A stretch of 64,000 bases of DNA, taken from positions 32,067 to 96,066 of the forward strand of contig MBPM02000157.1 in NCBI GenBank assembly GCA_001695595.3, in the 5' to 3' direction. Positions 38,363-64,000 of this stretch are shown one piece after another; positions within the stretch are counted from its first letter, which is position 1, and every line of letters starts with the position of its first letter. The position numbers and the translations under genes were made by a program. This stretch comes from Plasmopara viticola (lineage: Eukaryota > Oomycota > Peronosporomycetes > Peronosporales > Peronosporaceae). The notes below the pieces were generated by a model. The model saw only the letters and a list, made by a program, of their open reading frames with translations, had not been told where the DNA came from and searched no databases.

Positions 38363-38537
38363 TTAATAAATTGTCTTATCATTTTCTCAACAACCATCTC
38401 GCAAAGTGAAGCCGATGATCGACATTTTTTAAAATGCGGTCAATACGAAAAAATAGCGGGATGCCTTTTCCCCGAGATTGGTTCGGATGTGAGGTCCAAG
38501 CACTTCATTCTATCTGCTCGAAAGCACATGCAAATAG

Positions 38538-38641
38538 AAACCACCTCGGTGTTCATCCATTTAGATTGGAATGATACAGAGAAGATCAGCATGGCCCCTG
38601 CGCAAGGATGACACGCATAGATCGAGAAGAATCGCAATTTT
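38538..38641 (+). pseudogene. U6 snRNA, unit 0 (diverged)
   Basis: Retains ACAGAGA and the GCATGGCCCCTGCGCAAGG core. The 5' hairpin is broken (GGTGTT), GGAACG reads GGAATG and AGATTAGC reads AGATCAGC. Probably inactive. Confidence 0.75.
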
Positions 38642-38769
38642 TTGTGTTTAGTGCCGTTGCTCGACTCGTCGTCACATCACAAATCAGGCAAACTGCGCTC
38701 ACTATCTATAGCGAGGATAGTGAAGCAATCTGGAAGGAATTTAGCAAAAAGTCAGTAAAGCGCAAGATT

Positions 38770-38841
38770 TGAGGGAAGAGGGGATCGAACCCCCGACCGC
38801 TGGGACTGGAATTCAGCGCTCTACCACTGAGCTATTTCCCC
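38770..38841 (-). tRNA. tRNA-Trp(CCA), unit 0 (mispaired)
   Basis: Cloverleaf intact except position 30 (G to A) in the anticodon stem and position 5 (G to A) in the acceptor stem. Both create mismatches, so function is doubtful. Confidence 0.6.
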
Positions 38842-39340
38842 GGGTCCGAAAATTCAGACATTTGTATAGTCTAGATCAAGAATAAAGTTAATGAGCCTGC
38901 ATATCATTTGGACGTTGCGAAAAAGTGCCTCACACTACTGGTCTTGCTTGACTACTTTTAACACACATCAGTTGTTGCTGCTGTACGGCGTGCAATTTCT
39001 TACATGTATTGCGACTAAACGTAGTAACATTCGCACTGATCGAATTGTTTTGTTTATATGCTTTGTGTTTGGGCTTGCTACTTGTGTGTAATTTTTATTG
39101 TAATTGACCTTATTGCGTCTAATTACGTCGCTGCAGCTCAATGGCGAGCACTTGATTTGTTCAACCTCTTAAGTTTCTTCTTGATGTAGCGCCTACTTTG
39201 TGTCGTGTGCTGCACATCGTTGTGTCTCATGTTAGATGCCTAGAAGCGGGTGAGCGATGGGCTTAAATGTATTTGAGTGCTTCGCGTGGAGGGAAGCCGC
39301 AATTGATATGGTAGTGCTATATTGTACTTCCACCGAGGAT

Positions 39341-39421
39341 GACAGCTTGGCCGAGTGGTTTAGGCGTTAGCCTGCTAAGTTAATGGGGTAACCCGCGTAA
39401 GTTCGAATCTCACAGCTGTCG
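39341..39421 (+). tRNA. tRNA-Ser(GCU), unit 1
   Basis: One D-loop change (GGTTTA) and one T-stem change (CGTAAG, losing a pair). Anticodon loop CTGCTAA intact. Confidence 0.8.
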
Positions 39422-39618
39422 AATTATGCTATCCACGTCAGTCAATGAATTATCTTTTCATTTGCTCAACAAGCATCTTGCAAAGTGAAGCCGATGATCG
39501 ACATTTATTAAAATGCGGTCAATACGAAAAAATAGCGGGATGCCTTTTTCCCTAAAGTGGTTTTGGATGTGAGGTCTAAGCACTCCATTTATATCTGCTC
39601 GGCAGCACACGTAAATAG

Positions 39619-39641
39619 GAACCACCTCGGTGGTCATCCGT

Positions 39642-39673
<32 letters not shown>

Positions 39674-39721
39674 GGCCCCTGCGCAAGGATGACACGCATA
39701 ATCGAGAAGTATCGCAATTTT
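39619..39721 (+). ncRNA. U6 snRNA, unit 1
   Basis: All core motifs intact. One A is missing in the CATAATCGAG segment near the 3' end, and the terminator is TTTT. Confidence 0.9.
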
Positions 39722-39851
39722 ATTTGTGTTTAGTGCCGTTGCTCGGCTCGTCGTCTCATCACAAATCAGGCAAACTGCGCTCACTATCTATAGCGAGGAT
39801 AGTGAAGCAATCTGGAACGGATTTAGCAAAAAGTCAGTAAAGCGCAAGTTT

Positions 39852-39923
39852 TGAGGGAAGATGGGGTCGAACCCCCGACCACTGGGACTGGAATCCAGCG
39901 CTCTACCACTGAGCTATTCCCCC
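39852..39923 (-). tRNA. tRNA-Trp(CCA), unit 1 (T arm altered)
   Basis: T loop reads TTCGACC and T-stem position 64 is changed to A, giving a mismatch. The anticodon is intact. Confidence 0.7.
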
Positions 39924-40427
39924 GGGTCCGAAAACTCAGACGTTTGTATAGTATAGATCAAGAATAAAGTTAATGAGCCTGCATATCATTTGGACGTTGC
40001 GAAAAAGTGCCTCACACTACTGGTCTTGCTTGACTGCCTTTAACACACATCAGTTGTTGCTGCTGTACGGCGTGACTGGAATTTCTAACATGTATTGCGA
40101 CTAAACGTAGTAACATTCGCACTGATCGACTTGTTTTGTTTATATGCTTTGTGTTTGGGCTTGCTACTTGTGTGTAATTTTTATTGTATTTGACCTTTTT
40201 GCGTCTAATTACGTCGCTGCAGCTCAATGGTCGAGCACTTGATTTGTTCAACCCCTTAAGTTTCTTCTTGATGTAACACCTACTTTGTGTCGTGTGCTGC
40301 ACATCGTTGTGTCTCATGTTAGATGCCTAGAAGCGGGTGAGCGATGTGCTTGAATATATTTGAGTAGTTCGCGTGGAGGGAAGCCGCAATTGATATGGTA
40401 GTGCTGTATTGTACTTCCACCGAGGAT

Positions 40428-40508
40428 GACAGCTTGGCCGAGTGGTTAAGGCGTTAGCCTGCTAAGTTAATGGGGTAACCCGCGTGAGTTCGAATCTCAC
40501 AGCTGTCG
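40428..40508 (+). tRNA. tRNA-Ser(GCU), unit 2 (canonical)
   Basis: Matches the array consensus. Acceptor GACAGCT/AGCTGTC, discriminator G, anticodon loop CTGCTAA (GCU, reading AGC and AGU), a long class II variable arm, and T arm GTGAG-TTCGAAT-CTCAC. A TTTT tract follows about 34 bases downstream. Confidence 0.95.
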
Positions 40509-40705
40509 AATTATGCTATCCACGTCAGTCAATGAATTATCTTTTCATTTGCTCAACAAGCATCTTGCGAAGTGAAGCCGATGATCGACATTTATTAAAA
40601 TGCGGTCAATACGAAAAAATAGCGGGATGCCTTTTTCCCTAAAGTAGTTTTGGATGGGAGGTCCAAGCACTCCATTTATATCTGCTCGGTAGCACACGTA
40701 TATAG

Positions 40706-40809
40706 GAACCACTTCGGTGGTCATCCGTAAAGATTGGAATGATACAGAGAAGATTAGCATGGCCCCTGCGCAAGGATGACACGCATAGATCGAGAAGTAT
40801 CGCACTTTT
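40706..40809 (+). ncRNA. U6 snRNA, unit 2
   Basis: The 5' hairpin has a TTCG loop in place of CTCG. GGAACG is changed to GGAATG. The rest of the core is intact. Confidence 0.85.
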
Positions 40810-40946
40810 TTTGTGTCTAGTGCCGTTGCTCGGCTCGTCGTGAAATCAAAAATCAGGCAAACAGTGCTCACTTTCTATATTAAAATCGCGAGGATAGACA
40901 AGCAATCTTGAACGAATGTAGCAAAAAGTCAGTAAAGCGCAAGTTT

Positions 40947-41018
40947 TGAGGGAAGAGGGGATCGAATTCCCGACCGCTGGGACTGGAATTCAGCGCTCTA
41001 CCTCTGATCTATTCCCCC
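40947..41018 (-). pseudogene. tRNA-Trp relic, unit 2
   Basis: The T stem is broken (GG to AA at 52-53), the D arm is changed at two sites (GATC, AGAGG) and the anticodon stem is mispaired at 30. The B box is lost, so it is probably dead. Confidence 0.7.
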
Positions 41019-41522
41019 GGGTCCGAAAACTCAGACATTTGTATAGTATAGATCAAGAATAAAGTTAATGAGCCTGCATATCATTTGGACGTTGCGAAAA
41101 AGTGCCTCACACTACTGGTCTTGCTTGACTGCCTTTAACACACATCGGTTGTTGCTGCTGTACGGCGTGACTGGTATTTCTTACGTGTATTGCGACTAAA
41201 TGTAGTAACATTCGCACTGATCGAATTGTTTTGTCTTTATGCTTTGTGTTTGGGCTTGCTACTTGTGTGTAATTTTTATTGTATTTGACCTTATTGCGTC
41301 TAATTACGTCGCTGCAGCTCAATGGTCGAGCACTTGATTTGTTCAACCTCTTAAGTTTCTTCTTGATGTAGCGCCTACTTTGTGTCGTGTGCTGCACATC
41401 GTTGTGTCTCATGTTAGATGCCTAGAAGCGGGTGAGCGATGGGCTTGAATGTATTTGAGTGCTTCGCGCGGAGGGAAGCCGCAATTGATATGGTAGTGCT
41501 GTATTGTACTTCCACCGAGGAT

Positions 41523-41603
41523 GACAGCTTGGCCGAGTGGTTAAGGCGTTAGCCTGCTAAGTTAATGGGGTAACCCGCTTGTGTTCGAATCTCACAGCTG
41601 TCG
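41523..41603 (+). tRNA. tRNA-Ser(GCU), unit 3 (T arm altered)
   Basis: The T-stem 5' strand reads TTGTG where the consensus has GTGAG, giving two mismatches. The downstream T4 terminator is reduced to TTTCC. Confidence 0.7.
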
Positions 41604-41800
41604 AATTATGCTATCCACGTCAGTCAATGAATTATCTTTCCATTTGCTCAACAAGCATCTTGCAAAGTGAAACCGATGATCGACATTTATTAAAATGCGG
41701 TCAATACGAAAAAATAGCGGGATGCCTTTTTCCCTTAAGTGGTTTTAAATGGGAGGTCTAAGCACTCCATTTATATCTGCTCGGCAGCACACGTAAATAG

Positions 41801-41904
41801 GAACCACCTCGGTGGTCATCCGTAAGAATTGGAACGATACAGAGAAGATTAGCATGGCCCCTGCGCAAGGATGACACGCATAAATCGAGAAGAATCGCAA
41901 TTTT
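41801..41904 (+). ncRNA. U6 snRNA, unit 3
   Basis: Core intact (ATTGGAACGATACAGAG). The 3' end is of subtype B type (GAAGAATCGCAA followed by ten T). Confidence 0.9.
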
Positions 41905-42034
41905 TTTTTTGTTTAGTGCCGTTGCTCGGCTCGTCGTCTCATCACAAATCAGGCAAACTGCGCTCACTATCTATAGCAAGGATAGTGAAGCAATCTGGAA
42001 CGGATTTAGCAAAAAGTCAGTAAAGCGCAAGTTT

Positions 42035-42106
42035 TAAGGGAAGAGGGGATCGAACCCCCGACCGCTGGGACTGGAATCCAGCGCTCTACCACTGAGCTAT
42101 TCCCCC
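42035..42106 (-). tRNA. tRNA-Trp(CCA), unit 3
   Basis: Position 72 is C to T, so the first acceptor pair is G-U. Otherwise consensus. Confidence 0.8.
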
Positions 42107-42608
42107 GGGTCCGAAAACTCAGACGTTTGTATAGTATAGATCAAGAATAAAGTTAATGAGCCTGCATATCATTTGGACGTTGCGAAAAAGTGCCTCACAC
42201 TACTGGTCTTGCTTGACTGCCTTTAACACACATCAGTTGTTGCTGCTGTACGGCGTGACTGGAAGTTCTTACGTGTATTGGACTAAACGTAGTACCATTC
42301 GCACTGATCGAATTGTTTTGTCTTTATGCTTTGTGTTGGGCTTGCTACTTGTGTGTAATTTTTATTGTATTTGACCTTATTGCGTCTAATTACGTCGCTG
42401 CAGCTCAATGGTCGAGCACTTGATTTGTTCAACCTTTATAGTTTCGTCTTGATGTAGCGCCTACTTTGTGTCGTGTGCTGCACATCGTTGTGTCTCATGT
42501 TAGATGCCTAGAAGCGGGTGAGCGATGTGCTTGAATGTATTTGAGTGCTTCGCGTGGAGGGAAGCCGCAATTGATATGGTAGTGCTGTATTGTACTGTCA
42601 CCGAGGAT

Positions 42609-42689
42609 GAAAGCTTGGCCGAGTGGTTAAGGCGTAAGCCTGCTAAGTTAATGGGGTAACCCGCTTGTGTTCGAATATCACAGCTGTCG
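42609..42689 (+). pseudogene. tRNA-Ser(GCU), unit 4 (multiply mispaired)
   Basis: Position 3 C to A, anticodon stem T28 to A, T arm as in unit 3 plus C61 to A. It shares the first three changes with the inverted copy at 37819. Confidence 0.7.
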
Positions 42690-42884
42690 AATTATGCTAT
42701 CCACGTCAGTCAATGAATTATCTTTCCATTTGCTCAACAAGCATCTTGCAAAGTGAAACCGATGATCGACATTTAGTAAAATGCGGTCAATACAAAAATA
42801 GCGGGATGCCTTTTTTCCTAAAGTAGTTTTGGATGGGAGGTTTAAGCACTCCATTTATATCTGCTCGGTAGCACACGTAAATAG

Positions 42885-42988
42885 GAACCACCTCGGTGGT
42901 CATCCATAAACATTAGAACGATACAGAGAAGATTAGCATGGCCCCTGCGCAAGGATGACACGCATAAATCGAGAAGAATCGCAATTTT
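42885..42988 (+). ncRNA. U6 snRNA, unit 4 (subtype B)
   Basis: Reads CATTAGAACGATACAG where the consensus has AATTGGAACGATACAG. The ACAGAGA box and internal stem are intact. Confidence 0.85.
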
Positions 42989-43118
42989 TTTTTTGTTTAG
43001 TGCCGTTGCTCGGCTCGTCGTCTCATCACAAATCAGGCAAACTGCGCTCACTATCTATAGCAAGGATAGTGAAGCAATCTGGAACGGATTTAGCAAAAAG
43101 TCAGTAAAGCGCAAGTGT

Positions 43119-43189
43119 TAAGGGAAGAGGGGATCGAACCCCCGACCGCTGGGACTGAATCCAGCGCTCTACCACTGAGCTATTCCCCC
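43119..43189 (-). pseudogene. tRNA-Trp relic, unit 4
   Basis: One base is deleted in the anticodon loop (six-base loop TTCAGT), removing the CCA anticodon. C72 to T as in unit 3. Confidence 0.75.
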
Positions 43190-43690
43190 GGGTCCGAAAA
43201 CTCAGACGTTTGTATAGTATAGATCAAGAATAAAGTTAATGAGCCTGCATATCATTTGGACGTTGCGAAAAAGTGCCTCACACTACTGGTCTTGCTTGAC
43301 TGCCTTTAACACACATCAGTTGTTGCTGCTGTACGGCGTGACTGGAAGTTCTTACGTGTATTGGACTAAACGTAGTACCATTCGCACTGATCGAATTGTT
43401 TTGTCTTTATGCTTTGTGTTGGGCTTCCTACTTGTGTGTAATTTTTATTGTATTTGACCTTATTGCGTCTAATTACGTCGCTGCAGCTCAATGGTCGAGC
43501 ACTTGATTTGTTCAACCTTTAAGTTTCGTCTTGATGTAGCGCCTACTTTGTGTCGTGTGCTGCACATCGTTGTGTCTCATGTTAGATGCCTAGAAGCGGG
43601 TGAGCGATGGGCTTGAATGTATTTGAGTGCTTCGCGCGGAGGGATGCCGCAATTGATATGGTAGTGCTATATTGTACTTCCACCGAGGAT

Positions 43691-43770
43691 GAAAGCTTGG
43701 CCGAGTGGTTAAGGCGTTAGCCTGCTAAGTTAATGGGTAACCCGCGTGAGTTCGAATCTCACAGCTGTCG
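43691..43770 (+). tRNA. tRNA-Ser(GCU), unit 5 (subtype B)
   Basis: C3 to A gives an A:G mismatch at 3:70. One G is missing from the variable arm. The T4 terminator is lost. Confidence 0.75.
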
Positions 43771-43966
43771 AATTATGCTATCCACGTCAGTCAATGAATT
43801 ATCTTTCCATTTGCTCAACAAGCATCTTGCAAAGTGAAACCGATGATCGACATTTATTAAAATGCGGTCAATACAAAAAATAGCGGGATGCCTTTTTTCC
43901 TAAAGTAGTTTTGGATGGGAGGTTTAAGCACTCCATTTATATCTGCTCGGTAGCACACGTAGATAG

Positions 43967-44070
43967 GAACCACCTCGGTGGTCATCCATAAACATTAGAT
44001 CGATACAGAGAAGATTAGCATGGCCCCTGCGCAAGGATGACACGCATAAATCGAGAAGAATCGCAATTTT
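43967..44070 (+). ncRNA. U6 snRNA, unit 5 (subtype B)
   Basis: Reads CATTAGATCGATACAG. Core otherwise intact, and the 3' end is GAAGAATCGCAA with a long T run. Confidence 0.85.
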
Positions 44071-44200
44071 TTTTTTGTTTAGTGCCGTTGCTCGGCTCGT
44101 CGTCTCATCACAAATCAGGCAAACTGCGCTCACTATCTATAGCAAGGATAGTGAAGCAATCTGGAACGGATTTAGCAAAAAGTCAGTAAAGCGCAAGTTT

Positions 44201-44272
44201 TGAGAGAAGAGGGGATCGAACCCCCGACCGCTGGGACTGGAATCCAGCGCTCTACCACTGAGCTATTCCCCC
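44201..44272 (-). tRNA. tRNA-Trp(CCA), unit 5 (subtype B)
   Basis: C69 to T, giving a G-U acceptor pair. Otherwise consensus. Confidence 0.85.
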
Positions 44273-44773
44273 GGGTCCGAAACTCAGACGTTTGTATAGT
44301 ATAGATCAAGAATAAAGTTAATGAGCCTGCATATCATTTGGACGTTGCGAAAAAGTGCCTCACACTACTGGTCTTGCTTGACTGCCTTTAACACACATCA
44401 GTTGTTGCTGCTGTACGGCGTGACTGGAAGTTCTTACGTGTATTGGGACTAAACGTAGTACCATTCGCACTGATCGAATTGTTTTGTCTTTATGCTTTGT
44501 GTTGGGCTTCCTACTTGTGTGTAATTTTTATTGTATTTGACCTTATTGCGTCTAATTACGTCGCTGCAGCTCAATGGTCGAGCACTTGATTTGTTCAACC
44601 TTTAAGTTTCGTCTTGATGTAGCGCCTACTTTGTGTCGTGTGCTGCACATCGTTGTGTCTCATGTTAGATGCCTAGAAGCGGGTGAGCGATGGGCTTGAA
44701 TGTATTTGAGTGCTTCGCGCGGAGGGATGCCGCAATTGATATGGTAGTGCTATATTGTACTTCCACCGAGGAT

Positions 44774-44854
44774 GAAAGCTTGGCCGAGTGGTTAAGGCGT
44801 TAGCCTGCTAAGTTAATAAGGTAACCCGCGTGAGTTCGAATCTCACAGCTGTCG
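44774..44854 (+). tRNA. tRNA-Ser(GCU), unit 6 (subtype B)
   Basis: C3 to A, and two variable-arm G to A changes (AATAAGG). Confidence 0.75.
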
Positions 44855-45050
44855 AATTATGCTATCCACGTCAGTCAATGAATTATCTTTCCATTTGCTC
44901 AACAAGCATCTTGCAAAGTGAAACCGATGATCGACATTTATTAAAATGCGGTCAATACAAAAAATAGCGGGATGCCTTTTTCCCTAAAGTAGTTTTGGAT
45001 GGGAGGTTTAAGCACTCCATTTATATCTGCTCGGTAGCACACGTAGATAG

Positions 45051-45154
45051 GAACCACCTCGGTGGTCATCCATAAACATTAGATCGATACAGAGAAGATT
45101 AGCATGGCCCCTGCGCAAGGATGACACGCATAAATCGAGAAGAATCGCAATTTT
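45051..45154 (+). ncRNA. U6 snRNA, unit 6 (subtype B)
   Basis: TTAGATCG variant, as in unit 5. Confidence 0.85.
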
Positions 45155-45284
45155 TTTTTTGTTTAGTGCCGTTGCTCGGCTCGTCGTCTCATCACAAATC
45201 AGGCAAACTGCGCTCACTATCTATAGCAAGGATAGTGAAGCAATCTGGAACGGATTTAGCAAAAAGTCAGTAAAGCGCAAGTTT

Positions 45285-45356
45285 TGAGAGAAGAGGGGAT
45301 CGAACCCCCGACCGCTGGGACTGGAATCCAGCGCTCTACCACTGAGCTATTCCCCC
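45285..45356 (-). tRNA. tRNA-Trp(CCA), unit 6 (subtype B)
   Basis: C69 to T only. Confidence 0.85.
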
Positions 45357-45858
45357 GGGTCCGAAACTCAGACGTTTGTATAGTATAGATCAAGAATAAA
45401 CTTAATGAGCCTGCATATCATTTGGACGTTGCGAAAAAGTGCCTCACACTACTGGCCTTGCTTTACTGCCTCTAACACACATCAGTTGTTGCTGCTGTAC
45501 GGCGTGACTGGAAGTTCTTACGTGTATTGGACTAAACGTAGTACCATTCGCACTGATCGAATTGTTTTGTTTATATGCTTTGTGTTTGGGCTTGCTACTT
45601 GTGTGTAATTTTTATTGTATTTGACCTTATTGCGTCTAATTACGTCGCTGCAGCTCAATGGTCGAGCACTTGATTTGTTCAACCTCTTAAGTTTCTTCTT
45701 GATGTAGCGCCTACTTTGTGTCGTGTGCTGCACATCGTTGTGTCTCATGTTAGATGCCTAGAAGCGGGTGAGCGATGGGCTTGAATGTATTTGAGTGCTT
45801 CGCGCGGAGGGAAGCCGCAATTGATATGGTAGTGCTGTATTGTACTTCCACCGAGGAT

Positions 45859-45939
45859 GAAAGCTTGGCCGAGTGGTTAAGGCGTTAGCCTGCTAAGTTA
45901 ATGGGGTAACCCGCGTGAGTTCGAATCTCACAGCTGTCG
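45859..45939 (+). tRNA. tRNA-Ser(GCU), unit 7 (subtype B)
   Basis: C3 to A only. Terminator tract TTTCC. Confidence 0.8.
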
Positions 45940-46135
45940 AATTATGCTATCCACGTCAGTCAATGAATTATCTTTCCATTTGCTCAACAAGCATCTTGCA
46001 AAGTGAAACCGATGATCGACATTTATTAAAATGCGGTCAATACAAAAAATAGCGGGATGCCTTTTTTCCTAAAGTAGTTTTGGATGGGAGGTTTAAGCAC
46101 TCCATTTATATCTGCTCGGTAGCACACGTAGATAG

Positions 46136-46239
46136 GAACCACCTCGGTGGTCATCCATAAACATTAGAGCGATACAGAGAAGATTAGCATGGCCCCTGCG
46201 CAAGGATGACACGCATAAATCGAGAAGAATCGCAATTTT
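46136..46239 (+). ncRNA. U6 snRNA, unit 7 (subtype B)
   Basis: TTAGAGCG variant. Confidence 0.85.
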
Positions 46240-46367
46240 TTTTGTTTAGTGCCGTTGCTCGGCTCGTCGTCTCATCACAAATCAGGCAAACTGCGCTCAC
46301 TATCTATAGCAAGGATAGTGAAGCAATCTGGAACGGATTTAGCAAAAAGTCAGTAAAGCGCAAGTTT

Positions 46368-46439
46368 TGAGAGAAGAGGGGATCGAACCCCCGACCGCTG
46401 GGACTGGAATCCAGCGCTCTACCACTGAGCTATTCCCCC
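46368..46439 (-). tRNA. tRNA-Trp(CCA), unit 7 (subtype B)
   Basis: C69 to T only. Confidence 0.85.
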
Positions 46440-46939
46440 GGGTCCGAAACTCAGACGTTTGTATAGTATAGATCAAGAATAAAGTTAATGAGCCTGCATA
46501 TCATTTGGACGTTGCGAAAAAGTGCCTCACACTACTGGCCTTGCTTTACTGCCTTTAACACACATCAGTTGTTGCTGCTGTACGGCGTGACTGGAAGTTC
46601 TTACGTGTATTGGACTAAACGTAGTACCATTCGCACTGATCGAATTGTTTTGTCTTTATGCTTTGTGTTGGGCTTGCTACTTGTGTGTAATTTTTATTGT
46701 ATTTGACCTTATTGCGTCTAATTACGTCGCTGCAGCTCAATGGTCGAGCACTTGATTTGTTCAACCTTTAAGTTTCGTCTTGATGTAGCGCCTACTTTGT
46801 GTCGTGTGCTGCACATCGTTGTGTCTCATGTTAGATGCCTAGAAGCGGGTGAGCGATGGGCTTGAATGTATTTGAGTGCTTCGCGCGGAGGGAAGCCGCA
46901 ATTGATATGGTAGTGCTGTATTGTACTTCCACCGAGGAT

Positions 46940-55691: not shown

Positions 55692-55724
55692 AATTATGCT
55701 ATCCACGTCAGTCAATGAATTATC

Positions 55725-55728
55725 TTTT
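55725..55728 (+). terminator. Pol III terminator of tRNA-Ser, unit 16
   Basis: TTTT 34 bases after the mature 3' end. The same tract is present in all subtype A units after unit 0 and is mutated to TTTCC in units 3-8 and 10-12. Confidence 0.75.
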
Positions 55729-55857
55729 CATTTGCTCAACAAGCATCTTGCGAAGTGAAGCCGATGATCGACATTTATTAAAATGCGGTCAATACGAAAA
55801 AATAGCGGGATGCCTTTTTCCCTAAAGTGGTTTTGGATGGGAGGTCCAAGCACTCCA

Positions 55858-55864
55858 TTTATAT
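55858..55864 (+). promoter_or_regulatory. U6 TATA box, unit 16
   Basis: TTTATAT at -31 to -25 from the inferred U6 start, as in gene-external type 3 Pol III promoters. The sequence is retained in units 1-23; unit 0 reads TTCTATC. Confidence 0.8.
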
Positions 55865-55888
55865 CTGCTCGGTAGCACACGTAAATAG

Positions 55889-55912
55889 GAACCACCTCGG
55901 TGGTCATCCGTA

Positions 55913-55943
<31 letters not shown>

Positions 55944-55992
55944 GGCCCCTGCGCAAGGATGACACGCATAAATCGAGAAGTATCGCACTTTT
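55889..55992 (+). ncRNA. U6 spliceosomal snRNA, unit 16 (reference copy)
   Basis: 104 bases. The order is a 5' hairpin ACCAC-CTCG-GTGGT, then AAAATTGGAACG, the ACAGAGA box that pairs with the 5' splice site, AGATTAGCATGG, and the catalytic AGC triad and internal stem-loop region (CCCCTGCGCAAGGATGACACGC). The 3' end GTATCGCAC is followed by TTTT. The 3' GTATCG is complementary to CGATAC just before the ACAGAGA box, forming a telestem. Only the core matches the human sequence; both ends are lineage-specific but pair internally. The 5' end is inferred from the hairpin and TATA spacing. Confidence 0.97.
55989..55992 (+). terminator. Pol III terminator of U6, unit 16
   Basis: TTTT directly after the RNA 3' end. 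The run is longer (7-10 T) in many earlier units. Confidence 0.85.
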
Positions 55993-56098
55993 ATTTGTGT
56001 TTAGTGCCGTTGCTCGGCTCGTCGTCTCATCACAAATCAGGCAAACTGCGCTTACTATCTATAGCGAGGATAATGAAGCAATCTGGAACGGATTTAGC

Positions 56099-56103
56099 AA
56101 AAA
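56099..56103 (-). terminator. Pol III terminator of tRNA-Trp, unit 16
   Basis: TTTTT on the minus strand, 20 bases past the tRNA 3' end. It lies between tRNA-Trp and U6, so the two convergent genes end about 107 bases apart. Confidence 0.75.
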
Positions 56104-56122
56104 GTCAGTAAAGCGCAAGTTT

Positions 56123-56194
56123 TGAGGGAAGAGGGGATCGAACCCCCGACCGCTGGGACTGGAATCCAGCGCTCTACCACTGAGCTATTCCCCC
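56123..56194 (-). tRNA. tRNA-Trp(CCA), unit 16 (reference copy)
   Basis: 72 bases. Acceptor GGGGGAA/TTCCCTC fully paired, discriminator A, D arm GCTC-AGTGGTA-GAGC, anticodon loop TTCCAGT with CCA at 34-36, T arm GGGGG-TTCGATC-CCCTC. Pair 31:39 is A-C in all copies. Other anticodon registers (such as UCC) break the stem. The identity is inferred from the anticodon. Confidence 0.87.
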
Positions 56195-56217
56195 GGGTCC
56201 GAAAACTCAGACATTTG

Positions 56218-56226
56218 TATAGTATA
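56218..56226 (-). promoter_or_regulatory. TATA-like element upstream of tRNA-Trp, unit 16
   Basis: TATACTATA on the minus strand, 24-32 bases before the tRNA 5' end, conserved in every unit. It resembles the upstream TATA-like boxes of some plant tRNA genes. Confidence 0.5.
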
Positions 56227-56482
56227 GATCAAGAATAAAGTTAATGAGCCTGCATATCATTTGGACGTTGCGAAAAAGTGCCTCACACTACTGGTCTTGC
56301 TTGACTGCCTTTAACACACATCAGTTGTTGCTGCTGTACGGCGTGACTGGTATTTCTTACATGTATTGCGACTAAACGTAGTAACATTCGCACTAATCGA
56401 ATTGTTTTGTTTATATGCTTTGTGTTGGGCTTGCTACTTGTGTGTAATTTTTATTGTATTTGACCTTATTGCGTCTAATTAC

Positions 56483-56550
56483 GTCGCTGCAGCTCAATGG
56501 TCGAGCACTTGATTTGTTCAACCTCTTAAGTTTCTTCTTGATGTAGCGCC
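56483..56550 (+). pseudogene. tRNA-like relic in the array spacer, unit 16
   Basis: 68 bases. A good D arm, GCTCAATGGTCGAGC, follows a 7-base strand GTCGCTG that pairs at six of seven positions with TAGCGCC at the other end. The T arm is degenerate (AGTTTCTTCTTGATG), T8 is C and the anticodon arm is weak. It is present at the same place in all spacers and in the inverted edge unit. Confidence 0.45.
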
Positions 56551-56697
56551 TACTTTGTGTCGTGTGCTGCACATCGTTGTGTCTCATGTTAGATGCCTAG
56601 AAGCGGGTGAGCGATGTGCTTGAATGTATTTGAGTGCTTCGCGTGGAGGGAAGCCGCAATCGATATGGTAGTGCTATATTGTACTTCCACCGAGGAT

Positions 56698-56778
56698 GAC
56701 AGCTTGGCCGAGTGGTTAAGGCGTTAGCCTGCTAAGTTAATGGGGTAACCCGCGTGAGTTCGAATCTCACAGCTGTCG
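56698..56778 (+). tRNA. tRNA-Ser(GCU), unit 17
   Basis: Consensus. Confidence 0.95.
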
Positions 56779-56975
56779 AATTATGCTATCCACGTCAGTC
56801 AATGAATTATCTTTTCATTTGCTCAACAAGCATCTTGCGAAGTGAAGCCGATGATCGACATTTATTAAAATGCGGTCAATACGAAAAAATAGCGGGATGC
56901 CTTTTTCCCTAAAGTGGTTTTGGATGGGAGGTCCAAGCACTCCATTTATATCTGCTCGGTAGCACACGTAAATAG

Positions 56976-56999
56976 GAACCACCTCGGTGGTCATCCGTA

Positions 57000-57030
<31 letters not shown>

Positions 57031-57079
57031 GGCCCCTGCGCAAGGATGACACGCATAAATCGAGAAGTATCGCACTTTT
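56976..57079 (+). ncRNA. U6 snRNA, unit 17
   Basis: Consensus. Confidence 0.96.
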
Positions 57080-57209
57080 ATTTGTGTTTAGTGCCGTTGC
57101 TCGGCTCGTCGTCTCATCACAATTCAGGCAAACTGCGCTTACTATCTATAGCGAGGATAATGAAGCAATCTGGAACGGATTTAGCAAAAAGTCAGTAAAG
57201 CGCAAGTTT

Positions 57210-57281
57210 TGAGGGAAGAGGGGATCGAACCCCCGACCGCTGGGACTGGAATCCAGCGCTCTACCACTGAGCTATTCCCCC
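57210..57281 (-). tRNA. tRNA-Trp(CCA), unit 17
   Basis: Consensus. Confidence 0.87.
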
Positions 57282-57784
57282 GGGTCCGAAAACTCAGACA
57301 TTTGTATAGTATAGATCAAGAATAAAGTTAATGAGCCTGCATATCATTTGGACGTTGCGAAAAAGTGCCTCACACTACTGGTCTTGCTTGACTGCCTTTA
57401 ACACACATCAGTTGTTGCTGCTGTACGGCGTGACTGGTATTTCTTACATGTATTGCGACTAAACGTAGTAACATTCGCACTAATCGAATTGTTTTGTTTA
57501 TATGCTTTGTGTTGGGCTTGCTACTTGTGTGTAATTTTTATTGTATTTGACCTTATTGCGTCTAATTACGTCGCTGCAGCTCAATGGTCGAGCACTTGAT
57601 TTGTTCAACCTCTTAAGTTTCTTCTTGATGTAGCGCCTACTTTGTGTCGTGTGCTGCACATCGTTGTGTCTCATGTTAGATGCCTAGAAGCGGGTGAGCG
57701 ATGTGCTTGAATGTATTTGAGTGCTTCGCGTGGAGGGAAGCCGCAATCGATATGGTAGTGCTATATTGTACTTCCACCGAGGAT

Positions 57785-57865
57785 GACAGCTTGGCCGAGT
57801 GGTTAAGGCGTTAGCCTGCTAAGTTAATGGGGTAACCCGCGTGAGTTCGAATCTCACAGCTGTCG
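57785..57865 (+). tRNA. tRNA-Ser(GCU), unit 18
   Basis: Consensus. Confidence 0.95.
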
Positions 57866-58062
57866 AATTATGCTATCCACGTCAGTCAATGAATTATCTT
57901 TTCATTTGCTCAACAAGCATCTTGCGAAGTGAAGCCGATGATCGACATTTATTAAAATGCGGTCAATACGAAAAAATAGCGGGATGCCTTTTTCCCTAAA
58001 GTGGTTTTGGATGGGAGGTCCAAGCACTCCATTTATATCTGCTCGGTAGCACACGTAAATAG

Positions 58063-58086
58063 GAACCACCTCGGTGGTCATCCGTA

Positions 58087-58117
<31 letters not shown>

Positions 58118-58166
58118 GGCCCCTGCGCAAGGATGACACGCATAAATCGAGAAGTATCGCACTTTT
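58063..58166 (+). ncRNA. U6 snRNA, unit 18
   Basis: Consensus. Confidence 0.96.
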
Positions 58167-58296
58167 ATTTGTGTTTAGTGCCGTTGCTCGGCTCGTCGTC
58201 TCATCACAATTCAGGCAAACTGCGCTTACTATCTATAGCGAGGATAATGAAGCAATCTGGAACGGATTTAGCAAAAAGTCAGTAAAGCGCAAGTTT

Positions 58297-58368
58297 TGAG
58301 GGAAGAGGGGATCGAACCCCCGACCGCTGGGACTGGAATCCAGCGCTCTACCACTGAGCTATTCCCCC
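58297..58368 (-). tRNA. tRNA-Trp(CCA), unit 18
   Basis: Consensus. Confidence 0.87.
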
Positions 58369-58871
58369 GGGTCCGAAAACTCAGACATTTGTATAGTATA
58401 GATCAAGAATAAAGTTAATGAGCCTGCATATCATTTGGACGTTGCGAAAAAGTGCCTCACACTAGTGGTCTTGCTTGACTGCCTTTAACACACATCAGTT
58501 GTTGCTGCTGTACGGCGTGACTGGTATTTCTTACATGTATTGCGACTAAACGTAGTAACATTCGCACTAATCGAATTGTTTTGTTTATATGCTTTGTGTT
58601 GGGCTTGCTACTTGTGTGTAATTTTTATTGTATTTGACCTTATTGCGTCTAATTACGTCGCTGCAGCTCAATGGTCGAGCACTTGATTTGTTCAACCTCT
58701 TAAGTTTCTTCTTGATGTAGCGCCTACTTTGTGTCGTGTGCTGCACATCGTTGTGTCTCATGTTAGATGCCTAGAAGCGGGTGAGCGATGTGCTTGAATG
58801 TATTTGAGTGCTTCGCGTGGAGGGAAGCCGCAATCGATATGGTAGTGCTATATTGTACTTCCACCGAGGAT

Positions 58872-58952
58872 GACAGCTTGGCCGAGTGGTTAAGGCGTTA
58901 GCCTGCTAAGTTAATGGGGTAACCCGCGTGAGTTCGAATCTCACAGCTGTCG
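58872..58952 (+). tRNA. tRNA-Ser(GCU), unit 19
   Basis: Consensus. Confidence 0.95.
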
Positions 58953-59149
58953 AATTATGCTATCCACGTCAGTCAATGAATTATCTTTTCATTTGCTCAA
59001 CAAGCATCTTGCGAAGTGAAGCCGATGATCGACATTTATTAAAATGCGGTCAATACGAAAAAATAGCGGGATGCCTTTTTCCCTAAAGTGGTTTTGGATG
59101 GGAGGTCCAAGCACTCCATTTATATCTGCTCGGTAGCACACGTAAATAG

Positions 59150-59173
59150 GAACCACCTCGGTGGTCATCCGTA

Positions 59174-59204
<31 letters not shown>

Positions 59205-59252
59205 GGCCCTGCGCAAGGATGACACGCATAAATCGAGAAGTATCGCACTTTT
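59150..59252 (+). ncRNA. U6 snRNA, unit 19 (core deletion)
   Basis: One C is missing from the CCCC of the internal stem region (GGCCCTGCGC). Either an inactive copy or a homopolymer sequencing error. Confidence 0.85.
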
Positions 59253-59382
59253 ATTTGTGTTTAGTGCCGTTGCTCGGCTCGTCGTCTCATCACAATTCAG
59301 GCAAACTGCGCTTACTATCTATAGCGAGGATAATGAAGCAATCTGGAACGGATTTAGCAAAAAGTCAGTAAAGCGCAAGTTT

Positions 59383-59453
59383 TGAGGGAAGAGGGGATCG
59401 AACCCCCGACCGCTGGGACTGGAATCCAGCGCTCTACCACTGAGCTATTCCCC
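59383..59453 (-). tRNA. tRNA-Trp(CCA), unit 19
   Basis: One base is missing from the 5' G run, as in units 8 and 15. Confidence 0.82.
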
Positions 59454-59956
59454 GGGTCCGAAAACTCAGACATTTGTATAGTATAGATCAAGAATAAAGT
59501 TAATGAGCCTGCATATCATTTGGACGTTGCGAAAAAGTGCCTCACACTACTGGTCTTGCTTGACTGCCTTTAACACACATCAGTTGTTGCTGCTGTACGG
59601 CGTGACTGGTATTTCTTACATGTATTGCGACTAAACGTAGTAACATTCGCACTAATCGAATTGTTTTGTTTATATGCTTTGTGTTGGGCTTGCTACTTGT
59701 GTGTAATTTTTATTGTATTTGACCTTATTGCGTCTAATTACGTCGCTGCAGCTCAATGGTCGAGCACTTGATTTGTTCAACCTCTTAAGTTTCTTCTTGA
59801 TGTAGCGCCTACTTTGTGTCGTGTGCTGCACATCGTTGTGTCTCATGTTAGATGCCTAGAAGCGGGTGAGCGATGTGCTTGAATGTATTTGAGTGCTTCG
59901 CGTGGAGGGAAGCCGCAATCGATATGGTAGTGCTATATTGTACTTCCACCGAGGAT

Positions 59957-60037
59957 GACAGCTTGGCCGAGTGGTTAAGGCGTTAGCCTGCTAAGTTAAT
60001 GGGGTAACCCGCGTGAGTTCGAATCTCACAGCTGTCG
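59957..60037 (+). tRNA. tRNA-Ser(GCU), unit 20
   Basis: Consensus. Confidence 0.95.
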
Positions 60038-60234
60038 AATTATGCTATCCACGTCAGTCAATGAATTATCTTTTCATTTGCTCAACAAGCATCTTGCGAA
60101 GTGAAGCCGATGATCGACATTTATTAAAATGCGGTCAATACGAAAAAATAGCGGGATGCCTTTTTCCCTAAAGTGGTTTTGGATGGGAGGTCCAAGCACT
60201 CCATTTATATCTGCTCGGTAGCACACGTAAATAG

Positions 60235-60258
60235 GAACCACCTCGGTGGTCATCCGTA

Positions 60259-60289
<31 letters not shown>

Positions 60290-60338
60290 GGCCCCTGCGC
60301 AAGGATGACACGCATAAATCGAGAAGTATCGCACTTTT
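60235..60338 (+). ncRNA. U6 snRNA, unit 20
   Basis: Consensus. Confidence 0.96.
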
Positions 60339-60467
60339 ATTTGTGTTTAGTGCCGTTGCTCGGCTCGTCGTCTCATCACAATCAGGCAAACTGCGCTTAC
60401 TATCTATAGCGAGGATAATGAAGCAATCTGGAACGGATTTAGCAAAAAGTCAGTAAAGCGCAAGTTT

Positions 60468-60539
60468 TGAGGGAAGAGGGGATCGAACCCCCGACCGCTG
60501 GGACTGGAATCCAGCGCTCTACCACTGAGCTATTCCCCC
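60468..60539 (-). tRNA. tRNA-Trp(CCA), unit 20
   Basis: Consensus. Confidence 0.87.
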
Positions 60540-61042
60540 GGGTCCGAAAACTCAGACATTTGTATAGTATAGATCAAGAATAAAGTTAATGAGCCTGCAT
60601 ATCATTTGGACGTTGCGAAAAAGTGCCTCACACTAGTGGTCTTGCTTGACTGCCTTTAACACACATCAGTTGTTGCTGCTGTACGGCGTGACTGGTATTT
60701 CTTACATGTATTGCGACTAAACGTAGTAACATTCGCACTAATCGAATTGTTTTGTTTATATGCTTTGTGTTGGGCTTGCTACTTGTGTGTAATTTTTATT
60801 GTATTTGACCTTATTGCGTCTAATTACGTCGCTGCAGCTCAATGGTCGAGCACTTGATTTGTTCAACCTCTTAAGTTTCTTCTTGATGTAGCGCCTACTT
60901 TGTGTCGTGTGCTGCACATCGTTGTGTCTCATGTTAGATGCCTAGAAGCGGGTGAGCGATGTGCTTGAATGTATTTGAGTGCTTCGCGTGGAGGGAAGCC
61001 GCAATCGATATGGTAGTGCTATATTGTACTTCCACCGAGGAT

Positions 61043-61123
61043 GACAGCTTGGCCGAGTGGTTAAGGCGTTAGCCTGCTAAGTTAATGGGGTAACCCGCGT
61101 GAGTTCGAATCTCACAGCTGTCG
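61043..61123 (+). tRNA. tRNA-Ser(GCU), unit 21
   Basis: Consensus. Confidence 0.95.
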
Positions 61124-61320
61124 AATTATGCTATCCACGTCAGTCAATGAATTATCTTTTCATTTGCTCAACAAGCATCTTGCGAAGTGAAGCCGATGAT
61201 CGACATTTATTAAAATGCGGTCAATACGAAAAAATAGCGGGATGCCTTTTTCCCTAAAGTGGTTTTGGATGGGAGGTCCAAGCACTCCATTTATATCTGC
61301 TCGGTAGCACACGTAAATAG

Positions 61321-61344
61321 GAACCACCTCGGTGGTCATCCGTA

Positions 61345-61375
<31 letters not shown>

Positions 61376-61424
61376 GGCCCCTGCGCAAGGATGACACGCA
61401 TAAATCGAGAAGTATCGCACTTTT
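61321..61424 (+). ncRNA. U6 snRNA, unit 21
   Basis: Consensus. Confidence 0.96.
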
Positions 61425-61553
61425 ATTTGTGTTTAGTGCCGTTGCTCGGCTCGTCGTCTCATCACAATCAGGCAAACTGCGCTTACTATCTATAGCGAGG
61501 ATAATGAAGCAATCTGGAACGGATTTAGCAAAAAGTCAGTAAAGCGCAAGTTT

Positions 61554-61625
61554 TGAGGGAAGAGGGGATCGAACCCCCGACCGCTGGGACTGGAATCCAG
61601 CGCTCTACCACTGAGCTATTCCCCC
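61554..61625 (-). tRNA. tRNA-Trp(CCA), unit 21
   Basis: Consensus. Confidence 0.87.
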
Positions 61626-62128
61626 GGGTCCGAAAACTCAGACATTTGTATAGTATAGATCAAGAATAAAGTTAATGAGCCTGCATATCATTTGGACGTT
61701 GCGAAAAAGTGCCTCACACTACTGGTCTTGCTTGACTGCCTTTAACACACATCAGTTGTTGCTGCTGTACGGCGTGACTGGTATTTCTTACATGTATTGC
61801 GACTAAACGTAGTAACATTCGCACTAATCGAATTGTTTTGTTTATATGCTTTGTGTTGGGCTTGCTACTTGTGTGTAATTTTTATTGTATTTGACCTTAT
61901 TGCGTCTAATTACGTCGCTGCAGCTCAATGGTCGAGCACTTGATTTGTTCAACCTCTTAAGTTTCTTCTTGATGTAGCGCCTACTTTGTGTCGTGTGCTG
62001 CACATCGTTGTGTCTCATGTTAGATGCCTAGAAGCGGGTGAGCGATGTGCTTGAATGTATTTGAGTGCTTCGCGTGGAGGGAAGCCGCAATCGATATGGT
62101 AGTGCTATATTGTACTTCCACCGAGGAT

Positions 62129-62208
62129 GACAGCTTGGCCGAGTGGTTAAGGCGTTAGCCTGCTAAGTTAATGGGTAACCCGCGTGAGTTCGAATCTCAC
62201 AGCTGTCG
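62129..62208 (+). tRNA. tRNA-Ser(GCU), unit 22
   Basis: One G is missing from the variable-arm GGGG, as in unit 5. Otherwise consensus. Confidence 0.9.
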
Positions 62209-62405
62209 AATTATGCTATCCACGTCAGTCAATGAATTATCTTTTCATTTGCTCAACAAGCATCTTGCGAAGTGAAGCCGATGATCGACATTTATTAAAA
62301 TGCGGTCAATACGAAAAAATAGCGGGATGCCTTTTTCCCTAAAGTGGTTTTGGATGGGAGGTCCAAGCACTCCATTTATATCTGCTCGGTAGCACACGTA
62401 AATAG

Positions 62406-62429
62406 GAACCACCTCGGTGGTCATCCGTA

Positions 62430-62460
<31 letters not shown>

Positions 62461-62509
62461 GGCCCCTGCGCAAGGATGACACGCATAAATCGAGAAGTAT
62501 CGCACTTTT
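62406..62509 (+). ncRNA. U6 snRNA, unit 22
   Basis: Consensus. Confidence 0.96.
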
Positions 62510-62639
62510 ATTTGTGTTTAGTGCCGTTGCTCGGCTCGTCGTCTCATCACAATTCAGGCAAACTGCGCTTACTATCTATAGCGAGGATAATGAAGCAATC
62601 TGGAACGGATTTAGCAAAAAGTCAGTAAAGCGCAAGTTT

Positions 62640-62710
62640 TGAGGGAAGAGGGGATCGAACCCCGACCGCTGGGACTGGAATCCAGCGCTCTACCACTGAG
62701 CTATTCCCCC
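62640..62710 (-). tRNA. tRNA-Trp(CCA), unit 22
   Basis: One base is missing from the T-stem G run. Homopolymer error or mispaired T stem. Confidence 0.8.
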
Positions 62711-63213
62711 GGGTCCGAAAACTCAGACATTTGTATAGTATAGATCAAGAATAAAGTTAATGAGCCTGCATATCATTTGGACGTTGCGAAAAAGTGCCTC
62801 ACACTACTGGTCTTGCTTGACTGCCTTTAACACACATCAGTTGTTGCTGCTGTACGGCGTGACTGGTATTTCTTACATGTATTGCGACTAAACGTAGTAA
62901 CATTCGCACTAATCGAATTGTTTTGTTTATATGCTTTGTGTTGGGCTTGCTACTTGTGTGTAATTTTTATTGTATTTGACCTTATTGCGTCTAATTACGT
63001 CGCTGCAGCTCAATGGTCGAGCACTTGATTTGTTCAACCTCTTAAGTTTCTTCTTGATGTAGCGCCTACTTTGTGTCGTGTGCTGCACATCGTTGTGTCT
63101 CATGTTAGATGCCTAGAAGCGGGTGAGCGATGTGCTTGAATGTATTTGAGTGCTTCGCGTGGAGGGAAGCCGCAATCGATATGGTAGTGCTATATTGTAC
63201 TTCCACCGAGGAT

Positions 63214-63294
63214 GACAGCTTGGCCGAGTGGTTAAGGCGTTAGCCTGCTAAGTTAATGGGGTAACCCGCGTGAGTTCGAATCTCACAGCTGTCG
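63214..63294 (+). tRNA. tRNA-Ser(GCU), unit 23
   Basis: Consensus. Confidence 0.95.
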
Positions 63295-63491
63295 AATTAT
63301 GCTATCCACGTCAGTCAATGAATTATCTTTTCATTTGCTCAACAAGCATCTTGCGAAGTGAAGCCGATGATCGACATTTATTAAAATGCGGTCAATACGA
63401 AAAAATAGCGGGATGCCTTTTTCCCTAAAGTGGTTTTGGATGGGAGGTCCAAGCACTCCATTTATATCTGCTCGGTAGCACACGTAAATAG

Positions 63492-63515
63492 GAACCACCT
63501 CGGTGGTCATCCGTA

Positions 63516-63546
<31 letters not shown>

Positions 63547-63595
63547 GGCCCCTGCGCAAGGATGACACGCATAAATCGAGAAGTATCGCACTTTT
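63492..63595 (+). ncRNA. U6 snRNA, unit 23
   Basis: Consensus. Confidence 0.96.
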
Positions 63596-63724
63596 ATTTG
63601 TGTTTAGTGCCGTTGCTCGGCTCGTCGTCTCATCACAATCAGGCAAACTGCGCTTACTATCTATAGCGAGGATAATGAAGCAATCTGGAACGGATTTAGC
63701 AAAAAGTCAGTAAAGCGCAAGTTT

Positions 63725-63796
63725 TGAGGGAAGAGGGGATCGAACCCCCGACCGCTGGGACTGGAATCCAGCGCTCTACCACTGAGCTATTCCCCC
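63725..63796 (-). tRNA. tRNA-Trp(CCA), unit 23
   Basis: Consensus. The spacer after it is cut by the window end, so the array continues. Confidence 0.87.
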
Positions 63797-64000
63797 GGGT
63801 CCGAAAACTCAGACATTTGTATAGTATAGATCAAGAATAAAGTTAATGAGCCTGCATATCATTTGGACGTTGCGAAAAAGTGCCTCACACTACTGGTCTT
63901 GCTTGACTGCCTTTAACACACATCAGTTGTTGCTGCTGTACGGCGTGACTGGTATTTCTTACATGTATTGCGACTAAACGTAGTAACATTCGCACTAATC

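What the first reader, a model, noticed from the sequence alone, without database searches (positions are those of the whole stretch)
38370..64000. Large tandem array that packages U6 snRNA with tRNA-Ser(GCU) and tRNA-Trp(CCA)
At least 24 head-to-tail units of about 1,086 bp each carry one splicing RNA and two tRNAs, all Pol III genes with their own promoters and terminators. Tandem tRNA arrays are known (for example in Entamoeba), and U6 sits next to tRNA genes in kinetoplastids. A high-copy mixed U6/tRNA/tRNA array organised like rDNA is unusual, and I know of no description of this exact trio. The array could fix the dosage ratio of the three RNAs and may be a Pol III-rich chromatin domain.
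Basis: partly seen in the sequence, partly recalled or inferred. Interest (0 to 1): 0.88.

Follow-up and report, generated by a model that had tools for sequence, protein, structure and literature searches.

The report
U6 and tRNA genes in tandem
In what appears to be the grapevine downy mildew genome, all but one of the well-preserved copies of the splicing RNA U6 found here lie in a long repeat shared with two tRNA genes, and a related second repeat carries a third tRNA and a dead U6, so two arrays seem to have divided one ancestral gene set between them.

Summary
The array is real. Window 38,537-64,000 holds 23 full units and one cut unit of about 1,085 bp, each with U6 (+), tRNA-Trp(CCA) (-) and tRNA-Ser(GCU) (+). 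The genome matches the Plasmopara viticola PacBio assembly in size and scaffold number. It has 100 full-length units on four contigs; of 108 U6-core matches, 107 lie there and one in a fragment on C44. U1, U2, U4 and U5 have at least 5, 6, 1 and 3 copies.

The tRNA part has a precedent: a tRNA-Thr(CGT)/Trp(CCA)/Ser(GCT) array in Phytophthora infestans. My searches found no print report of U6 in such a unit.

New here: a second array, on the same contig and on others, has units of about 1,293 bp with live tRNA-Thr(CGT) and tRNA-Ser(GCU) and a decayed U6. The main unit carries the decayed 5' half of tRNA-Thr at the colinear place. Decayed units between the two arrays keep remnants of all four genes. 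Best reading: one ancestral four-gene Pol III unit whose two descendant arrays lost complementary genes and are homogenised separately. Dosage control is not supported. Expression was not tested.

The parts
38537..64000 (+). Main tandem array: 23 full units of 1,081-1,095 bp and one cut by the contig end; unit order U6(+), tRNA-Trp(CCA)(-), decayed tRNA-Thr 5' half(+), tRNA-Ser(GCU)(+)
38537..38643 (+). U6 snRNA of the first unit (92.8 bits); 23 further copies downstream in the window
38770..38841 (-). tRNA-Trp(CCA) of the first unit (50.7 bits)
39127..39160 (+). Decayed 5' half of tRNA-Thr(CGU) in the first unit, colinear with the live tRNA-Thr of the sister array; place read off the sequence by eye
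   Evidence: alignment of the consensus unit; sequence
39340..39422 (+). tRNA-Ser(GCU) of the first unit
39586..39598 (+). TATA-like element CATTTATATCTGC ending 21 bp before the second U6 (39,620); the same 13 letters in 98 of 100 full units of the assembly
39620..39723 (+). U6 snRNA of the second unit (105.9 bits)
38356..38537 (+). Left edge of the array: cut unit, 87% identical to consensus positions 903-1086
37029..38363 (-). Inverted decayed unit at the array edge: tRNA-Ser 37,818-37,900 (34.4 bits), decayed U6 37,504-37,601 (23 bits), decayed tRNA-Trp about 37,303-37,373
19601..22142 (-). Two old decayed units: tRNA-Thr(CGT) 22,027-22,099 (38.9 bits), tRNA-Ser 21,383-21,465 (26.5 bits, below cut-off), U6-like stretch 21,037-21,178 (by BLAST only), Ser and spacer remnant 20,211-20,493, decayed U6 20,091-20,191 (25.7 bits), tRNA-Trp remnant within 19,841-19,988
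16390..16684 (-). Further decayed fragment from the Trp side of the unit (64% to main positions 220-499; 79% to sister positions 485-603)

Best explanation
This is a composite tandem array of Pol III genes kept alike by concerted evolution. Each unit encodes U6, tRNA-Trp(CCA) and tRNA-Ser(GCU), and each gene is most likely transcribed on its own: the tRNAs from internal A and B boxes, U6 from an upstream TATA-type promoter (inferred). The array is the only detected source of U6 in this assembly apart from one fragment, and nearly the only one of tRNA-Trp (shown by search within stated mismatch limits). It descends from a four-gene unit: Thr, Ser and U6 on one strand, Trp on the other. A sister lineage of arrays kept Thr and Ser, lost Trp by a deletion of about 200 bp and let U6 decay; the main lineage kept U6, Trp and Ser and let Thr decay. 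The remnants and the colinearity are shown; the order and polarity of the losses are inferred. Copies are spread by unequal exchange, which keeps most units uniform while units at an edge drift (pattern seen at the C157 edge; process inferred). No dosage function is needed.
For: U6: the assembly has 108 matches to a 36-nt core (up to 3 mismatches) and 110 to a 22-nt core (up to 3); the stretches fetched from C157, C108, C285, C309 and C44 hold the same numbers on each strand. Trp: 116 of 117. Other snRNAs over cut-off, as lower bounds: U4 1, U2 6, U5 3, U1 5. Sister unit of about 1,293 bp with Thr(CGT) and Ser(GCT) on C157:6.6-16.9 kb, C166 and C71; its U6 scores 39.7-44.5 bits where listed, has ACAGATA for ACAGAGA and AAC for AGC, and lacks the TATA element (sequences). 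Between the two array consensuses Ser is 81 of 82 identical, the spacer after it 102 of 158, U6 73 of 102 and the TATA element 7 of 13. Thr relic in the main unit: a colinear match at E = 3e-16 that runs into the first 35 nt of the sister Thr gene; a 27-nt core has 22 identities, and 0 of 1,000 dinucleotide shuffles of the spacer reach its score. An old unit at window 19.6-20.5 kb matches the sister up to position 478 and again from 481, and keeps a Trp remnant in the roughly 206 bp between. C157 edge: Spearman -0.77 over 23 units; 14-42 differences from the majority in the 13 units nearest the flank, 7 in the next, 3-5 in the last nine.
Against: No expression data. Within the main array, substitutions per site are lower in genes than in spacers on average (0.0081 against 0.0132), but a site-by-site rank test is not significant (p = 0.52). 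There is no significant edge trend on C108, C285 or C309, and C108 has a diverged block inside the array (24-51 differences at 5.7-9.9 kb). Only 47 of 100 full units have the commonest Trp sequence and 33 of 100 have all three genes in the commonest form; many differences are one-base homopolymer losses that may be read errors. Rfam did not recognise the Thr relic as a tRNA even at E = 5 in the one unit scanned. No other oomycete genome could be searched, so polarity rests on decayed units and on published statements about P. infestans.
Confidence: 0.76

Rival explanations
1. Selected co-amplification: the three genes are kept together in many copies to fix the ratio of U6 to the two tRNAs.
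For: Strict one-to-one-to-one composition of nearly all full units in the window.
Against: U4, which pairs with U6, has 1 detected copy (lower bound) against 108 U6 cores. tRNA-Ser is also encoded by the sister array (207 Ser matches in the assembly, 115 of them in the stretches tallied, which include sister copies on C157). The genes depart from their commonest form in different numbers of units. The sister array lost U6 and Trp.
Confidence: 0.08
2. Assembly artefact: one or a few units multiplied by the assembler.
For: All four array contigs begin or end inside the array; one contig (C285) has an inverted junction that may be chimeric.
Against: Units carry distinct substitutions, with a gradient at the C157 edge; the arms of C285 are not mirror copies; the assembly that this one matches is reported as built from 185x PacBio data (PMC6660063, passage); tRNA gene numbers in P. 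infestans, mostly in tandem arrays, agreed with Illumina read depth (PMC9584435, passage).
Confidence: 0.04
3. The unit is a satellite or mobile element that carried the genes passively.
For: A 451-bp U6-Trp fragment lies alone on C44 between identical 247-bp direct repeats, so pieces can move.
Against: Tandem, not dispersed, in this assembly: 1 isolated U6 core out of 108. Between arrays Ser is kept while the spacer beside it diverges. I did not scan the unit for transposon features.
Confidence: 0.06
4. The array has a structural chromosome role (insulator, boundary or Pol III-rich nuclear domain), and the RNA output of most units is secondary.
For: The P. infestans authors raise a role in nuclear or chromatin organisation for their tRNA arrays, citing yeast work (PMC9584435, passage).
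Against: Nothing in the sequence tests it; the array is nearly the only detected U6 source, so its RNA output cannot be secondary as a whole.
Confidence: 0.1

Closest known systems
Phytophthora infestans trimeric tRNA array on Chr1, tRNA-Thr(CGT)/tRNA-Trp(CCA)/tRNA-Ser(GCT) (PMC9584435, 2022; passages seen)
   Same: Same three tRNA identities in one tandem unit in a related oomycete; more diversity within such arrays than within monomeric ones; growth by unequal crossing-over proposed by the authors
   Different: No mention of U6 snRNA, U6 RNA, U6 gene or spliceosome in the paper's text; 'snRNA' occurs once, in a figure legend on repeat classes. Whether its unit holds U6 is unknown. Here the gene set is split over two array types
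Entamoeba tRNA gene arrays (PMC2652664, 2007; passages seen), including the [TX] array
   Same: Tandem units with up to 6 tRNAs, some with 5S RNA and one with an RNA suspected to be an snRNA
   Different: Short tandem repeats in the spacers of E. histolytica; RNA X was not firmly identified; here the snRNA is U6, matched by a covariance model
Diplonema papillatum SL RNA-5S rRNA-U2 array (PMC10161547, 2023; passages seen)
   Same: Three different small RNA genes in one tandem unit, one of them an snRNA
   Different: No tRNA; U2, not U6; described there as exceptional and seemingly absent from other diplonemids
Trypanosomatid Pol III clusters (PMC2695483, 2009; passages seen)
   Same: A U6 gene in a tRNA cluster (Leishmania major chr24-II)
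   Different: Clusters of single genes, not head-to-tail arrays of one unit

Membership tests
U6 snRNA (RF00026) | Match to the covariance model over its full length above the gathering score | tested here: met
   24 of 24 copies in the window, 90.5-106.3 bits against 44
U6 snRNA (RF00026) | ACAGAGA box and AGC triad (names recalled) | tested here: met
   36-nt core holding both is identical in 91 of 100 full units
U6 snRNA (RF00026) | Transcribed and bound to U4 and Lsm proteins | not testable with these tools
   No RNA data
tRNA-Trp(CCA) and tRNA-Ser(GCU) genes | Cloverleaf with the named anticodon | tested here: met
   22 of 24 Trp and 22 of 23 Ser copies in the window named by ARAGORN; all 47 reach the Rfam gathering score, two of them narrowly (33.0 and 29.1 bits against 29)
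Composite tRNA tandem arrays (Entamoeba / oomycete kind) | Head-to-tail units, each with two or more different small RNA genes | tested here: met
   100 full-length units on four contigs
Composite tRNA tandem arrays (Entamoeba / oomycete kind) | Spacers made of short tandem repeats (E. histolytica) | tested here: not met
   Tandem Repeats Finder lists none at score 50 in the window, so it is not of the E. histolytica sub-kind
Phytophthora infestans Thr/Trp/Ser array | All three tRNAs live in one unit | tested here: not met
   Main unit lacks a live Thr, sister unit lacks Trp; decayed units keep remnants of all
Phytophthora infestans Thr/Trp/Ser array | Sequence homology of the repeat unit | not tested
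   No oomycete genome other than this one was available to the tools

The most novel reading that the evidence does not exclude
Tandem arrays can subfunctionalise as whole arrays. An ancestral Thr-Ser-U6/Trp Pol III unit, predicted to be shared across the Phytophthora and downy mildew lineage, was duplicated into two arrays that lost complementary genes and are now separately homogenised. The cell's U6 supply then depends on one tRNA-type array.
Probability: 0.55. Interest if true: 0.65.

Novelty: new variant of a known kind. Interest (0 to 1): 0.55.

Why it matters
Two related arrays on one contig, with decayed units between them, let one watch how the gene content of a tandem unit changes under concerted evolution: which genes each array keeps, which it lets die, and in what order. 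It also shows an essential snRNA whose detected genes lie almost wholly inside a tRNA-type array. Surveys made with tRNA finders alone would not show this, because they do not look for U6.

Tried and rejected
Dosage or stoichiometry as the reason for linkage: not supported (one detected U4, a second source of Ser, genes departing from the commonest form in different numbers of units). A shared snRNA promoter block (GAGGTCTAAGCAC upstream of U6): a first test read three of five loci in the wrong direction; repeated in the right direction for one U4 and four U2 loci, the best match is 6-8 of 13 letters, reached by 391-1,000 of 1,000 shuffles, so no support. A mirror-copy artefact on C285: arms not mirrored. 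tRNA linkage of other small RNA genes: no tRNA within about 1.5 kb of one U4, four U2, two U5 and four 5S loci, 11 of 11; U1 loci could not be fetched. Direct alignment of the old tRNA-Thr (22,027) to the whole main unit pointed to Trp, because tRNAs share boxes; the colinear comparison with the sister unit settled the place. The global alignment of the two units misaligned the middle and is not used there. U6 core in viral contigs: 0 matches. Constraint within the array by rank test: not significant.

The organism is inferred from assembly size and scaffold number alone (92,937,831 bases in 358 contigs; 92.94 Mb and 358 scaffolds in the text of PMC6660063, 359 in its abstract). No gene or marker was compared.

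That U6 in such an array is not in print rests on the searches over an open-licence library, and on term counts inside PMC9584435. 'U6' alone is too short a term to search. Supplementary files and figures were not seen.
Full report
OBSERVATION. The window holds a head-to-tail array from 38,537 to its end. Rfam finds 24 U6, 24 tRNAs at the Trp place and 23 at the Ser place. ARAGORN names 22 of 24 as Trp(CCA) and 22 of 23 as Ser(GCT). Unit lengths are 1,081-1,095 bp. U6 and Ser are on the plus strand, Trp on the minus strand. In the consensus unit of 1,087 bp U6 starts at 1, Trp lies at 233-304, Ser starts at 809, and a TATA-like element at 1054-1066 ends 21 bp before the next U6.

GENOME. The window is contig 157, bases 32,067-96,066, of an assembly of 92,937,831 bases in 358 contigs. 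This matches the Plasmopara viticola PacBio assembly (92.94 Mb; 358 scaffolds in the text, 359 in the abstract; PMC6660063, passages). The identification rests on those two numbers. The array runs to the contig end.

EXTENT. With a consensus query, 100 full-length units are found: 23 on C157, 31 on C108, 26 on C285 and 20 on C309, with cut units besides. C108 starts inside the array, and C157, C285 and C309 end inside it. The true copy number is therefore unknown. C285 has an inverted junction at 18,620/18,621; its arms are not mirror copies, but a mis-join is not excluded.

ONLY SOURCE. The assembly has 108 matches to a 36-nt U6 core (up to 3 mismatches) and 110 to a 22-nt core (up to 3). The stretches fetched from C157, C108, C285, C309 and C44 hold exactly these numbers on each strand. 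One of them, on C44, is outside the array, in a 451-bp U6-Trp fragment. For Trp, 116 of 117 core matches (up to 3 mismatches in 32 nt) are in these stretches; the last was not located. U1, U2, U4 and U5 reach their cut-offs 5, 6, 1 and 3 times; these counts come from a different kind of search, which scores only the best candidates, and are lower bounds. More diverged copies of any of these genes could be missed. No tRNA lies within about 1.5 kb of the U4, U2, U5 and 5S loci fetched (0 of 11).

GENE INTEGRITY. Of 100 full units, 62 have the commonest U6 sequence, 91 the exact 36-nt U6 core, 47 the commonest Trp, 72 the commonest Ser and 98 the exact TATA-like element; 33 have all three genes in the commonest form. 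Many Trp and Ser differences are one-base losses in runs of C or G, which may be leftover read errors. Mean substitutions per site are 0.0081 in genes and 0.0132 in spacers, with a rank-test p of 0.52, so that test does not show constraint within the array. The TATA element varies less than the spacer beside it (2 substitutions in 1,300 cells against 123 in 15,600; p = 0.003, ignoring shared descent).

HOMOGENISATION. On C157 the 13 full units nearest the flank differ from the majority sequence by 14-42 substitutions, the next by 7 and the last nine by 3-5 (Spearman -0.77, p = 1.5e-5). C108, C285 and C309 show no significant trend (0.32, 0.30, 0.07). The last units of C108 and C285 are more diverged, but C108 also has a diverged block inside the array (24-51 differences at 5.7-9.9 kb), which a plain edge model does not predict. 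A unit form cut at 419 and resumed at 60 recurs three times on C108 (32,637, 35,180, 40,966), which fits exchange of multi-unit blocks.

SISTER ARRAY. Searching with the tRNA-Thr of the window flank revealed a second array on C157:6.6-16.9 kb, C166 and C71. Its unit of about 1,293 bp has tRNA-Thr(CGT) and tRNA-Ser(GCT). An exact 40-nt Thr piece occurs 90 times (my count of the listing) on C71, C157, C166, C254, C328 and C344; the last three contigs were not read. About 282 bp after the start of Ser, where the main unit has U6, lies a U6 relic of 39.7-44.5 bits where listed. A 62-nt piece of it is present with up to 3 mismatches in all eight sister stretches tried (L025, L026, L031-L036) and absent from L037, which holds a lone Ser copy. 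It reads ACAGATA for ACAGAGA and AAC for AGC, and lacks the TATA element, so it is most likely dead.

COLINEARITY. Main and sister units align in order over Ser, spacer and U6, and again from main 410 to 628, a match (E = 3e-16) that ends in the first 35 nt of the sister tRNA-Thr. A 27-nt core of this relic has 22 identities to tRNA-Thr; 0 of 1,000 dinucleotide shuffles of the spacer reach its score. Rfam does not see a tRNA there in the one unit scanned, as one would expect of half a gene. Between arrays Ser is 81 of 82 identical, the following spacer 102 of 158 and U6 73 of 102.

INTERMEDIATES. Between the two arrays on C157 lie decayed units. At window 19,601-22,142 (minus strand) are tRNA-Thr, two Ser copies, a U6 relic found by Rfam below its cut-off, a second U6-like stretch found by BLAST only, and a Trp remnant. 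One unit there matches the sister at 82% up to sister position 478 and resumes at 481 (78%); the 206 bp between hold the Trp remnant (alignment score 51 against a maximum of 15 in 1,000 shuffles). So the sister lacks Trp at a clean place where an otherwise sister-like unit has it. The inverted unit at 37,029-38,363 also keeps a decayed U6 and a decayed Trp.

INTERPRETATION. The simplest history is one unit with Thr, Ser and U6 on one strand and Trp on the other, duplicated into two array lineages. One lost Thr; the other lost Trp by deletion and U6 by mutation. As far as the searches show, U6 and Trp now come from one array type, Thr(CGT) from the other and Ser from both. A gain of Trp instead of a loss is possible, but then the main, old and edge units must all descend from the gain while the sister does not.

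PRIOR ART. P. infestans has a tandem tRNA-Thr(CGT)/Trp(CCA)/Ser(GCT) trimer on Chr1 (PMC9584435, passages), which fits the inferred ancestor; its text has no mention of U6 snRNA, U6 RNA or U6 gene, and one of 'snRNA', in a figure legend on repeat classes. Entamoeba has tRNA arrays with 5S RNA and one suspected snRNA (PMC2652664, passages). Diplonema has an SL-5S-U2 array (PMC10161547, passages). The kind is therefore known; U6 in such a unit and the split between two arrays are what is new, as far as the open-licence searches show.

LIMITS. No RNA data, no second oomycete genome, no reads. How the genes are transcribed is inference from their sequence and from established knowledge of Pol III genes.

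Noticed in passing
window 11670-15284 (-): Uninterrupted reading frame of 1,204 aa with a Rif1 N-terminal domain (Pfam PF12231, E = 3e-20).
   Followed up: partly
window 28456-30174 (+): Uninterrupted reading frame of 572 aa with a heat-shock-factor type DNA-binding domain (Pfam PF00447, E = 2e-24), lying between decayed array units.
   Followed up: partly
C44:486943-487950 of the window's genome (L019, L020): Isolated 451-bp U6-Trp fragment between two identical 247-bp direct repeats, in a region 82-88% alike to the left end of C157.
   Followed up: partly
C285:18620/18621 (L016): The array changes direction here; real inversion or mis-join not settled.
   Followed up: partly
C254, C328, C344 of the window's genome: More exact tRNA-Thr(CGT) pieces, many about 1,290 bp apart, so probably further sister arrays; not read.
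   Followed up: no
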